From a virus, in IMG/VR virus record IMGVR_UViG_3300046455_000203, positions 1 to 41,505 of that record: a DNA stretch of 41,505 nucleotides, one strand, 5' to 3'. This document shows, in pieces, positions 1 through 41,505 of the stretch. The position numbers and the translations under genes are program-made. Under the pieces are notes generated by a model, which was given only the letters and a program-made list of their open reading frames with translations, was not told where the DNA came from and did not search any database. Each line of letters opens with the position of its first letter. Position 1 is the stretch's first letter.

Positions 1-145
1 TGGTCGTAGTTTTTTGCCCTATAGAGGTAAAGTTGCTAGTAGTTGGATTTGTGGTGTAACTAGTGCTACCGATCAATCTATTTATTTCTATGATGGAGGC
101 TATTGGAAAGGAGATTGCGCTAATAGTACAGATCATATTGGGGGT
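1..145. repeat. Terminal overlap, left copy (same as 41361-41505)
   Basis: Bases 1-145 equal bases 41361-41505 at a constant offset of 41360 with one difference: C at 19 against A at 41379. The difference is silent (CCC or CCA, Pro) in the gene that spans the junction. This is the signature of a circular or circularly permuted assembly and not of a functional long terminal repeat, because the reading frame continues without a break across it. The unique genome length is therefore 41360 bases. Confidence 0.95.
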
Positions 146-28558: not shown

Positions 28559-28678
28559 GTTGTTTATTTAATCCCACCTGTAGGTTATATGCCATTAATT
28601 AAAGGCCTAAAAAAATTCTTTGGTGAATTATTATCCAAACGCGACCTGCTGGCAGATATTAACTGGAGAACGCCAAAT

Positions 28679-28696
28679 AGCACCCTTTCGGGTGCT
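28679..28696 (-). terminator. Hairpin after the first AT-hook-like gene
   Basis: AGCACCC/GGGTGCT, 7 bp; on the leftward strand the loop is GAAA, a stable tetraloop, followed by ATTTGG. It lies 69 bases after the stop at 28765 and upstream of the early promoter, so it would insulate that promoter. The adjoining 14-bp perfect palindrome AATTGACGTCAATT (28697-28710) is of unknown use. Confidence 0.55.
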
Positions 28697-28764
28697 AATT
28701 GACGTCAATTCCTTGAAGATCAATTAGGTCAAGACTAGCCACGTATTCCCAGGGGTTTACTTAC

Positions 28765-29082: not shown

Positions 29083-29424
29083 TTTTTCCTCTTTCATTGG
29101 TTGGTGAAAAAGGGAATAGCGTAGCTAGTCCTGACCTAATCAATCTTCAATTTTCAAAGAACCTGCGCCGAGATCAGCGGGCGAAGCTGGCGCCGTATTG
29201 CGTGGCGCAGCTAGAGCCTAGTATTTCTTTACCGATACAAACCAACCGAATTGGACTTGTAATCAGACTGTAACGTAAACGTTTGCATTATTGGGACAGT
29301 CGTACCGGAAATGCAAACGTTTACGTGAACATTGATTAGTTGTGCCCACAATAGTTGCGTACGCAAGCTTTGGTGAATTATAATCTGGAATGCGACGCCG
29401 GAGGCACGTAGGGCGAAACACCAA
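29083..29424. promoter_or_regulatory. Leader of paralogue 1, operator-rich
   Basis: Non-coding. Reading leftward it has a TATAAT (29382-29377), the palindrome TTGCGTACGCAA (29355-29366), TTGTG-CC-CACAA (29340-29351), then a perfect 16-bp inverted repeat CGTAAACGTTTGCATT (29274-29289 with 29310-29325), each arm containing the palindrome AAACGTTT. The first three elements recur in the same order upstream of paralogue 2. A 103-codon frame crossing it is not credible. Nothing further is seen in 29083-29273. Confidence 0.6.
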
Positions 29425-29452
29425 TAACCCCTAACCTTTCGGCTAGGGGTTA
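29425..29452 (-). terminator. Hairpin terminator next to parS
   Basis: TAACCCCTA-x-CC, tetraloop, GG-x-TAGGGGTTA. On the leftward strand the stem is 12 bp with one G-U pair and a GAAA loop, followed by TTGGTGTTT. It would end the transcript of the zinc-ribbon gene 29480-29620, and separates it from paralogue 1. Confidence 0.65.
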
Positions 29453-29462
29453 CTGATTCAAT

Positions 29463-29478
29463 TGTTTCACGTGAAACA
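29463..29478. promoter_or_regulatory. parS site (bacterial chromosomal ParB-binding consensus)
   Basis: TGTTTCACGTGAAACA, a perfect 16-bp match to the consensus ParB-binding site of bacterial chromosomes, extended to an 18-bp palindrome at 29462-29479. It abuts the stop of the zinc-ribbon gene (29480). No ParA or ParB gene is recognised in the window, so it would recruit the host ParB, a CTP-dependent clamp that loads at parS and spreads. Confidence 0.85.
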
Positions 29479-29479
29479 A

Positions 29480-29620
29480 CTAGACCTTGATTCTTTCCAC
29501 CGTCATTTCTGACGTCATTGCTTTGGCGCAAGGCCGACACAATGTTACCTCTGCATTCTCATCCAGCAGATACCAAGTAACACTTGCCATAGAGCGACCA
29601 CAACATTCGCAAGCTTCCAT
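29480..29620 (-). CDS. 46-residue zinc-ribbon protein
   Basis: ATG 29620, GAGGTG upstream. MEACECCGRSM and, 20 residues later, VTLCRPCAKAM give two CxxC knuckles. The form recalls small Zn-ribbon proteins common in actinophages. Its stop touches the parS palindrome. Whether it acts with parS is unknown. Confidence 0.7.
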   Translation of the reverse strand: MEACECCGRSMASVTWYLLDENAEVTLCRPCAKAMTSEMTVERIKV

Positions 29621-29699: not shown

Positions 29700-30023
29700 T
29701 CAGCATGCTTTGGCAGGGTTAGGCTTCTCAACCTTCTTCCTACCTCGCGGCTTGTCAGGGTCCTTCTTTACCAAGCGGGGAAGTCCTTTGGCCCAAGCCT
29801 TGTCGATATATCCACTATCGACTTGCTGGTCCCATTGCTTATTATCGGCTGCCCGATACTTAGCAAGGACTTCCGCTATTGCGGCATAGAAAGATCGCTG
29901 AGCAAGAATGGTCTCGATATCGAGGTTGGCATATGCCTGGACCAAGAGCACTTCATTGCTCTCGATAACAGCGCCAGCACCGAATACCACCATCTCCCGC
30001 TTAGGATCTAGTTCCTTCTTCAT
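29700..30023 (-). CDS. AT-hook-like small protein, paralogue 2
   Basis: 107 residues from ATG 30023, with GGAGGG 7 bases upstream. It shares with paralogue 1 VVFGAGAVIESNEVLLVQAY, the RAADNKQWD ... SGY stretch and the end PRLVKKDPDKPRGRKKVEKP with a final Cys. The KPRGRK core again suggests AT-hook binding. It is the first leftward gene after the central control region, so it is probably among the earliest made. A longer in-frame start at 30176 lies in the operator cluster and is unlikely. Confidence 0.72.
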   Translation of the reverse strand: MKKELDPKREMVVFGAGAVIESNEVLLVQAYANLDIETILAQRSFYAAIAEVLAKYRAADNKQWDQQVDSGYIDKAWAKGLPRLVKKDPDKPRGRKKVEKPNPAKAC

Positions 30024-30413
30024 TGTGTTTCCCTCCTTCCGTTCTTTGACTTCTACGGCGAGACTTCCTCGCACTTCCTTACGAATACAATTAAACCATT
30101 CCTTTACCGGTAAAGGGAACAGATTCTTTGTGCGGTAACAAAGAATCTTTATGCACTCGACTGCATAGTAATTCACGGTACAAGTGTACCGCTTATGAAT
30201 TCCCGGTACGAGTGTACCGTTGTGGACACAACCGTTGCAGTATGCAATAGTTTATAATATGAACTGTTGCAATGCACAATAGTTGCACCCGCAATAGTTG
30301 TGGTCGCAACTATCCGGTTGGTCCCTCTACTATGCGATTGGCGTATTTTGCCAATTCACCAGACAAATTTTCTCTTAACTTTGAGCAGACACAAACCATT
30401 AAAAAACGGAATT
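30024..30413. promoter_or_regulatory. Central divergent control region, palindrome cluster
   Basis: About 390 non-coding bases between the leftward and rightward arms. From left: CCTTTACCGGTAAAGG (30101-30116, perfect); AGATTCTTTGT inverted repeat (30121-30131 with 30138-30148); GGTAC-AAGT-GTACC (30177-30190) and GGTAC-GAGT-GTACC (30205-30218), start-to-start 28 bp; GTTGTG-GA-CACAAC (30219-30232); TTGCA-GTA-TGCAA (30235-30247); TATAAT on + (30253-30258) without a -35; two direct AATAGTTG copies; ATAGTTG-6-CAACTAT (30294-30313). This is dense enough for a switch between early and late transcription. Confidence 0.65.
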
Positions 30414-40242: not shown

Positions 40243-41505
40243 ATGGCTGTCTTTGGAGAAGAAACTTTCGAGCTTCCTATCTTTGCTGGACTTGGCATAA
40301 CCGATAGACCTACTGACACTCTTTGTCCTCAACTTCAAAATATGTTTCTGAGTTCTGAGAAAGAATACCGGATCAGAGAAGATTTCATCCTAATCCAGCG
40401 AACTACGAAAACGCCAATCGCTATTGGAATTGCACAGCCTGTTCCTAGAACTCTTTTTGAAAATAACATGGAAGTGTTCACAGCTGTAGGTATTGAAACT
40501 GCGGATACTCCTACGATTTTACAGTTCTTTGATGATGGAACCACAAGAGATTGTAGATGGTTGAACTGTAATGCAATTACTCCTACATCTGTTGTTCAAA
40601 CATTAGCCGCTGGCTATGGTGTCAAAGCTTTTTGTCAGTACAAGGATCGCTATTATGCCAGTAATGGTACTACCGTTGGAAAGATTTTCAGAATTCAAAA
40701 CTTCGTAGCTGCCGGTGGTGCTTTAACAGTTACTGATCTGAACACTATTACTAAAGGCGTGGATATTCTTCTCACCTTTCGTTCTCGTGTGTTTGGGATC
40801 AAGAAGAACCGTATCTACTATACTGATCTTCCAGCTATTGCAGGTTACCCTGAGGTCTGGAATGAAAGTATCAATGTCATTGAAATTCCTTCTGTAGACT
40901 TTGATGTTACAGTTCACAATGCATTTGTCTACAGGGATAAGATTTATATGTTCACTGACAAGGGAATTTATGTTCTTTCCGTGAATGGTGCCCCTGTAAA
41001 CTGGAGTATTCAGCCGGTAAGTACTAACTACCCCATCTATGACAGAGACTCTGTATGTCTTAACAAGAATGTGATTTTCTTGACAGATCAACAGAGTGTA
41101 ACAATGTTTGATGGATCACAGTTTAAGCCTATTTCTAACAATATTCGCTCTGTTTTCCATAATAACAACTCAAGTTATTGTTGGTTTAGTGTGTATGCTT
41201 GGGAAGATGGAATTCTTCTTACTAGAAATAGTTTCAATGCTCCGTCTGGATTTTACACACGAAGTACAAATACTAATAACAACAAGAAAATGCTCTACTT
41301 CAACATGTTTATTTGGACGGAAATAGAGTTGGCTGATAGCTATTGGGCTACGATCAAAGCTGGTCGTAGTTTTTTGCCATATAGAGGTAAAGTTGCTAGT
41401 AGTTGGATTTGTGGTGTAACTAGTGCTACCGATCAATCTATTTATTTCTATGATGGAGGCTATTGGAAAGGAGATTGCGCTAATAGTACAGATCATATTG
41501 GGGGT
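40243..41505 (+). CDS. Tail nozzle/hub protein, N-terminal part (continues at 1-505)
   Basis: The first 421 codons; the complete protein is 540 residues across the circular junction. The sequence repeats short strand units with aromatic turns (RDKIYMFTDKGIYVLS, NKNVIFLTDQQSVTMFDGSQ, WSVYAWEDGILLTRN-like), as in beta-propeller nozzle proteins such as P22 gp10 and T7 gp12. It would close the tail tube below the adaptor and carry the fibre encoded next. Fold assigned by pattern only. Confidence 0.72.
   Translation, partial: MAVFGEETFELPIFAGLGITDRPTDTLCPQLQNMFLSSEKEYRIREDFILIQRTTKTPIAIGIAQPVPRTLFENNMEVFTAVGIETADTPTILQFFDDGTTRDCRWLNCNAITPTSVVQTLAAGYGVKAFCQYKDRYYASNGTTVGKIFRIQNFVAAGGALTVTDLNTITKGVDILLTFRSRVFGIKKNRIYYTDLPAIAGYPEVWNESINVIEIPSVDFDVTVHNAFVYRDKIYMFTDKGIYVLSVNGAPVNWSIQPVSTNYPIYDRDSVCLNKNVIFLTDQQSVTMFDGSQFKPISNNIRSVFHNNNSSYCWFSVYAWEDGILLTRNSFNAPSGFYTRSTNTNNNKKMLYFNMFIWTEIELADSYWATIKAGRSFLPYRGKVASSWICGVTSATDQSIYFYDGGYWKGDCANSTDHIGG
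41361..41505. repeat. Terminal overlap, right copy (same as 1-145)
   Basis: Right-hand copy of the 145-base assembly overlap; differs from the left copy only at 41379 (A against C at 19). Confidence 0.95.

What the first reader, a model, noticed from the sequence alone, without database searches (positions are those of the whole stretch)
29463..29478. Perfect bacterial parS site on a lytic-looking phage with no par genes
Seen: TGTTTCACGTGAAACA, with an 18-bp full palindrome, placed exactly at the stop of a small gene and beside a terminator. Known: this is the ParB-binding consensus of bacterial chromosomes; ParB loads there as a CTP clamp, spreads, and recruits SMC. A 16-bp exact match by chance in 41 kb is very unlikely. 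Inference: the phage recruits host ParB to position, compact or protect its DNA, or titrates ParB from the host origin. The site lies between the leaders of two AT-hook-like proteins, near the likely control centre.
Basis: partly seen in the sequence, partly recalled or inferred. Interest (0 to 1): 0.9.

Follow-up and report, generated by a model that had tools for sequence, protein, structure and literature searches.

The report
Host-type centromere site on actinophage genome
A virus of soil-type actinobacteria carries one perfect copy of the DNA site that bacteria use to mark and pull apart their own chromosomes, but none of the genes that act on it, so it probably borrows the host's machinery, as many unrelated lytic phages also seem to do.

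Summary
TGTTTCACGTGAAACA lies at 29463-29478 inside an 18-bp perfect palindrome, the longest in the window, between the stop of a 46-aa gene and a terminator. Chance expectation is about 1e-6 to 1e-5. The window is a near-complete genome (145-bp terminal repeat), with no hit to ParB, ParA (AAA_31) or tyrosine integrase models.

Of four relatives, one is the same phage. A divergent one (L123) keeps the site in place with 24 identical bases. L121 and L122 keep the small gene but lack the site anywhere, so it is facultative.

The wider context matters more. The 18-mer occurs in at least 119 IMG/VR contigs and 117 named-phage records. Scrambled palindromes gave 0 and 1 in IMG/VR; the first gave 0 in named phages. 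Only 2 of 119 contigs encode ParB. Sites sit between genes far above chance (46/78 against 14%, p about 3e-20). Lytic phages of Listeria, Lactobacillus, Bacillus, Ruegeria and Arthrobacter carry 1-4 exact copies without ParB. Streptomyces and Solirubrobacterales genomes with related terminases carry the same site near parB.

Best explanation: an orphan parS that loads host ParB. Binding and benefit (positioning/segregation, silencing or titration) are untested. The kind is known from phi29 (from memory); this is a new member.

The parts
29462..29479 (.). parS-type palindrome TTGTTTCACGTGAAACAA (16-bp consensus at 29463-29478)
   Evidence: identical 24-bp block in L123
29480..29620 (-). 46-codon ORF, CxxC-rich (zinc-ribbon-like) protein MEACECCGRS...; its TAG stop (29480-29482) abuts the palindrome
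   Evidence: homologues in L121 (57%), L122 (87%), L123 (57%); no Pfam or PHROG hit
29421..29456 (.). strong hairpin, intrinsic-terminator-like, just past parS on the minus strand; may also end a plus-strand transcript
   Evidence: -26.5 kcal/mol; stem identical in L123, replaced by other hairpins in L121 and L122
28765..29097 (-). h1, AT-hook-like protein (..KKDPDKPRGRKP..); accessory paralogue present only in the parS-bearing relatives
29700..30023 (-). h2, AT-hook-like paralogue, present in all four relatives
29355..29384 (+). sigma70-like promoter candidate TTGCGT-N18-TATAAT driving a short plus-strand transcript towards parS
   Evidence: sequence only; TATAAT kept in L123
29386..29456 (+). 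candidate small plus-strand RNA with the conserved core GACGCCGGAGGCACG and terminator, converging on parS
   Evidence: core found in L121, L122 and L123; no Rfam match

Best explanation
The palindrome is a genuine chromosomal-type parS site that loads the ParB protein of the actinobacterial host onto the phage DNA. By established ParB biology, a host ParB dimer recognises the site, closes as a CTP-dependent clamp and slides into flanking DNA, forming a ParB cluster that can be handled by host ParA and SMC. The most likely benefit is that entering or replicating phage DNA is positioned with the host origin or pole and is shared between daughter cells or hyphal compartments, or spores, when lysis is delayed. 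This is the strategy reported for virulent Bacillus phage phi29 (from memory). Shown here: the sequence, its rarity by chance, its intergenic position, the absence of par genes, the same site next to parB in actinobacterial genomes, and recurrence of orphan sites across unrelated phages. Inferred: actinobacterial host, ParB binding, spreading, and the segregation or positioning benefit.
For: Exact 18-bp palindrome with expectation about 1e-6. At least 119 IMG/VR contigs against 0 and 1 for two scrambled palindromes, and 117 against 0 named-phage records. ParB_N in only 2 of 119 such contigs and in none of 8 named phages. Non-coding placement 46/78 against 13.9% expected, p 3e-20, with a preference for abutting stop codons (15 against 8.2 expected, p about 0.002), as in the window. 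Lytic phages carry 1-4 exact copies, often clustered. Nearest terminase relatives in genomes are actinobacterial; the Streptomyces genome has 10 exact sites around parB and the Solirubrobacterales MAG has one about 1.7 kb from parB. 27 of 60 Actinomycetota genomes have the exact 16-mer against 0 for the reversed control. Mycobacterial parS is this sequence (PMC2346475). A single oriC-proximal parS suffices in P. aeruginosa (PMC4368675).
Against: L121 and L122, about 88% identical in the structural region, have no site at 3 or fewer mismatches, so it is not essential. Named relatives Jasmine, Adat, DS1, Shocker and ctEqG8 lack it. Only one copy is present. The adjacent terminator is as conserved as the site between window and L123, so site-specific selection within this lineage is not proven. 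The host is inferred, not identified. No binding data exist.
Confidence: 0.68

Rival explanations
1. Host ParB is recruited, but to regulate transcription: ParB spreading from parS silences or insulates the neighbouring early promoters and the two AT-hook genes, tying phage gene expression to host cell-cycle state.
For: The site lies in the control region between the AT-hook genes and between a minus-strand gene end and a candidate converging plus-strand transcript. ParB-dependent repression next to parS is described for P. aeruginosa (a ParB silencing test in PMC4368675; title of PMC5521831). The site co-occurs with the extra AT-hook gene h1.
Against: The stop-adjacent position beside a terminator is where a regulator would matter least. 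Sites in other phages sit in many different gene contexts.
Confidence: 0.12
2. The site acts against the host: multiplying phage copies titrate ParB (and SMC) away from the host origin and so disrupt host segregation or division.
For: Each replicated genome adds a site, while actinobacterial chromosomes here carry about 1-11 exact sites where any is found. Some phages carry clusters of 3-4.
Against: Only one site here, where titration would favour many. par genes are non-essential in several hosts (PMC7022226), so the gain is unclear.
Confidence: 0.1
3. Neutral or captured sequence: a remnant of host DNA, or a palindrome forming part of a terminator-type gene end, without ParB function in the phage.
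For: Absent from L121 and L122. The palindrome can fold as a weak RNA hairpin, -4.9 kcal/mol, before the terminator. A second, different palindrome sits before another terminator at 28697-28710.
Against: The exact parS letters, not palindromes in general, are enriched in viruses. The adjacent terminator is already strong (-26.5 kcal/mol). The site is unchanged in L123 while flanks diverge to about 74%.
Confidence: 0.12
4. Operator for a phage-encoded regulator that happens to share the parS sequence.
For: The region holds other palindromes and repeats, e.g. 30101-30116 and 29355-29366.
Against: Only one copy in the genome at up to 3 mismatches. No ParB-like protein is encoded. The same letters recur in unrelated viruses of different hosts.
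Confidence: 0.03

Closest known systems
parS sites of virulent Bacillus phage phi29 and relatives (Meijer et al. 2005, from memory; not held in the library)
   Same: Virulent phage, no ParA or ParB of its own, host-type parS letters. A phi29-type phage read here, Chedec 11, has 2 exact sites plus 1 with one mismatch and no ParB.
   Different: Different phage lineage and inferred host phylum; one site rather than several; sporulation of the host is unknown.
Chromosomal parS of Actinomycetota (Streptomyces, Mycobacterium, Corynebacterium)
   Same: Identical 16-bp sequence (PMC7022226).
   Different: On a phage genome, single copy, no parAB nearby.
Orphan parS in lytic Herelleviridae and others: Listeria P100/A511, Lactobacillus Bromius, Bacillus BcoS-136, Ruegeria DSS3P8, Arthrobacter Atuin
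   Same: Exact site, mostly between genes, no ParB in the genomes tested.
   Different: Unrelated phages, 1-4 exact sites, often clustered or in terminal repeats. I found no report of these sites in the literature held.
ParABS of plasmid prophages (P1; extrachromosomal mycobacteriophages such as RedRock)
   Same: Phage-borne centromere site.
   Different: Those encode their own ParA and ParB with cognate sites; none here.

Membership tests
Chromosomal-type parS site | Match to the 16-bp palindrome TGTTTCACGTGAAACA | tested here: met
   Exact, 0 mismatches
Chromosomal-type parS site | Specific binding and CTP-dependent loading of ParB | not testable with these tools
   Needs biochemistry or ChIP
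Chromosomal-type parS site | Cognate ParB of the host uses this sequence | tested here: inconclusive
   Host not identified. At phylum level 27/60 Actinomycetota have the exact site, and genomes with related terminases have it near parB
Complete ParABS partition system | ParA and ParB encoded on the same replicon | tested here: not met
   No PF02195 or PF13614 match in a near-complete genome
phi29-type orphan parS of virulent phages | parS letters on a phage lacking ParB and integrase | tested here: met
   lytic lifestyle itself is inferred
phi29-type orphan parS of virulent phages | Host ParB promotes retention of phage DNA in daughter cells or spores | not testable with these tools
   No isolate
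phi29-type orphan parS of virulent phages | Several sites per genome | tested here: not met
   One site

The most novel reading that the evidence does not exclude
Borrowing host ParB through an orphan parS is a general, convergently acquired strategy of lytic phages across Firmicutes, Actinomycetota and Alphaproteobacteria hosts, used to place or partition phage DNA with the host origin during slow or stalled infections. This actinophage is one instance, in which the site forms part of an accessory cassette with an AT-hook DNA-binding gene.
Probability: 0.4. Interest if true: 0.85.

Novelty: new member of a known kind. Interest (0 to 1): 0.62.

Why it matters
If host ParB loads on this DNA, lytic phages would be direct clients of the bacterial chromosome segregation machinery without encoding any part of it. 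That offers a concrete route to carrier states, and to even sharing of phage DNA in hyphae and spores. The survey shows orphan parS sites are common in viruses, sit between genes and nearly always lack a cognate ParB, so the question can be tested at once in cultured systems such as Listeria P100, Lactobacillus Bromius or Arthrobacter Atuin.

Tried and rejected
Nucleotide search of 9 kb around the site against named phages: no match. Reading the site as part of a resident ParABS system: rejected, no ParA or ParB. Reading it as a multi-copy phage operator: rejected, single site. Greedy ORF calling for the intergenic test mis-called short ORFs, including one over the window's own site (21/78 non-coding, p 7e-5), and was replaced by codon-score calling. 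Host by tRNA: ARAGORN gave one implausible tRNA. Rfam: nothing. More relatives through the AT-hook proteins: only the same four contigs. The 80 wider terminase relatives held no site at 2 or fewer mismatches. The phi29 parS paper is not in the library; literature searches for phage or phi29 parS gave no report of orphan parS in virulent phages.

Full report
OBSERVATION. The sequence is exactly as described. TGTTTCACGTGAAACA is at 29463-29478 within the 18-bp perfect palindrome 29462-29479, the longest perfect palindrome of the window. Expected occurrences under first- to third-order Markov models are 1.1e-5 to 1.7e-5 (16-mer) and about 1.4e-6 (18-mer). There is no second site within 3 mismatches. 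On the minus strand it directly follows the TAG of a 46-codon ORF (29480-29620) and precedes a strong hairpin at about 29421-29456. A candidate plus-strand short transcript (TTGCGT-N18-TATAAT at 29355-29384, then the conserved GACGCCGGAGGCACG core) converges on it.

THE GENOME. The window is a virus record. Its ends share a 145-bp direct repeat at 99.3% identity, so it is essentially complete. It encodes terminase, portal, major capsid, amidase, DNA polymerase A, an AAA/DnaB-like ATPase, a PD-(D/E)XK nuclease, endonuclease VII and an SNF2 helicase. There is no match to ParB_N, AAA_31 (ParA) or tyrosine integrase models. The capsid protein is nearest to Manatee Spring podovirus ctEqG8 (56%), then Arthrobacter, Microbacterium and Cellulosimicrobium phages. 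The best terminase relatives in bacterial genomes are a Solirubrobacterales MAG (42%) and Streptomyces griseosporeus (37%). An actinobacterial host is therefore inferred, not shown.

WITHIN THE LINEAGE. Terminase and AT-hook searches find only four close contigs. L084 is the same phage (99.7%). L123, 80-87% identical over most of its alignable length, keeps the site in place. Around it the alignment is about 74% identical, the small protein is 57% identical, 24 bases spanning the palindrome are unchanged, and the neighbouring terminator stem is also unchanged. L121 and L122 keep the small gene (57% and 87% amino-acid identity) but have no site anywhere at up to 3 mismatches. In L122 the stop is followed directly by a different terminator. 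The site co-occurs with h1, an extra copy of an AT-hook-like gene that L121 and L122 lack. So the site is an accessory feature: kept across considerable divergence in one branch, absent from two others. Eighty more distant terminase relatives have no site at 2 or fewer mismatches in the regions held, and five named relatives have none in their whole genomes.

ACROSS VIRUSES. Two palindromes with the same half-site composition give 0 and 1. In named phages the 18-mer query gives 117 records and the first scrambled control 0. Hits are dominated by hosts known to have chromosomal ParB (Listeria, Lactobacillus, Bacillus, Ruegeria, Arthrobacter), and no Escherichia group appears among those named. 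ParB_N was sought in all the parS contigs: 2 of 119 have it. None of the named phages P100, Bromius, DSS3P8, BcoS-136, Chedec 11, Arian, Atuin and phi 3 has it. Reducing the contigs to 79 clusters and calling genes by codon score, 46 of 78 sites are non-coding against 13.9% expected (p 3e-20). Within gaps the sites favour positions next to a stop codon (15 against 8.2 expected, p about 0.002), the layout seen in the window. The gene caller is home-made. The annotated phages agree: the retrieved sites in Bromius, DSS3P8, BcoS-136, Chedec 11, Arian and Atuin fall between genes, and the P100 site overlaps only the annotated start of gp159. One exception is the second Chedec 11 site, which lies in the endolysin gene. 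These phages carry 1-4 exact copies, sometimes tightly clustered (four within 1 kb in BcoS-136), with zero for the reversed control.

HOST SIDE. S. griseosporeus has 10 exact sites on the contig holding parB. The Solirubrobacterales MAG has one about 1.7 kb from parB. In 60 Actinomycetota genomes, 27 have the exact 16-mer and none the reversed control. The same sequence is the mycobacterial parS (PMC2346475), fits the C. glutamicum consensus (PMC7022226), and a single oriC-proximal parS suffices in P. aeruginosa (PMC4368675).

INTERPRETATION. The enrichment of these exact letters, their non-coding placement and the lack of cognate genes are best explained by recruitment of host ParB. For the benefit I favour positioning or segregation with the host origin during delayed lysis, by analogy with phi29, whose virulent genome is reported to use host Spo0J and parS for entry into spores (from memory; paper not held). 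Transcriptional silencing by spreading and titration are live rivals. Neutrality is not excluded, because two sister phages lack the site.

NOVELTY. Host-type parS on a virulent phage is a known kind. This is a new member in an actinophage lineage. The breadth of orphan parS across lytic phages was not found described in the library searched, but that library is incomplete.

Noticed in passing
window 28660-28710: A second gene-end layout of the same form: 14-bp palindrome AATTGACGTCAATT (28697-28710) next to a terminator hairpin after the h1 gene; not a parS sequence.
   Followed up: partly
window 29386-29456 and 28634-28703: Two candidate plus-strand small RNAs ending in terminators; the core GACGCCGGAGGCACG of the first is identical in L121, L122 and L123, and no Rfam family matches.
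   Followed up: partly
window 29270-29325: Long imperfect inverted repeat GTAAACGTTTGCAT ... ATGCAAACGTTTAC upstream of h1, resembling an operator pair.
   Followed up: no
window 30101-30116 and 30175-30222: 16-bp palindrome CCTTTACCGGTAAAGG and repeated GGTACAAGTGTACC-type palindromes upstream of h2; the latter also seen in L121, L122 and L123.
   Followed up: no
window 1-145 and 41361-41505: 145-bp direct terminal repeat (99.3% identity) although IMG/VR classes the record as linear.
   Followed up: yes
L218 (Bacillus phage vB_BcoS-136) 3167-4172: Four exact parS sites within 1 kb on a phage with no ParB_N match, a natural parS array.
   Followed up: partly
Arthrobacter phage Atuin (OK040794.2) and Vibrio phage phi 3 (KP280063.1): parS sites occur as pairs repeated at both genome ends, i.e. 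in long terminal repeats (annotated as such for phi 3), where DNA may enter the cell first.
   Followed up: partly
L035 and L081: The only two of 119 parS-bearing viral contigs with a ParB_N match; they may be plasmid-like prophages or carry host DNA.
   Followed up: no
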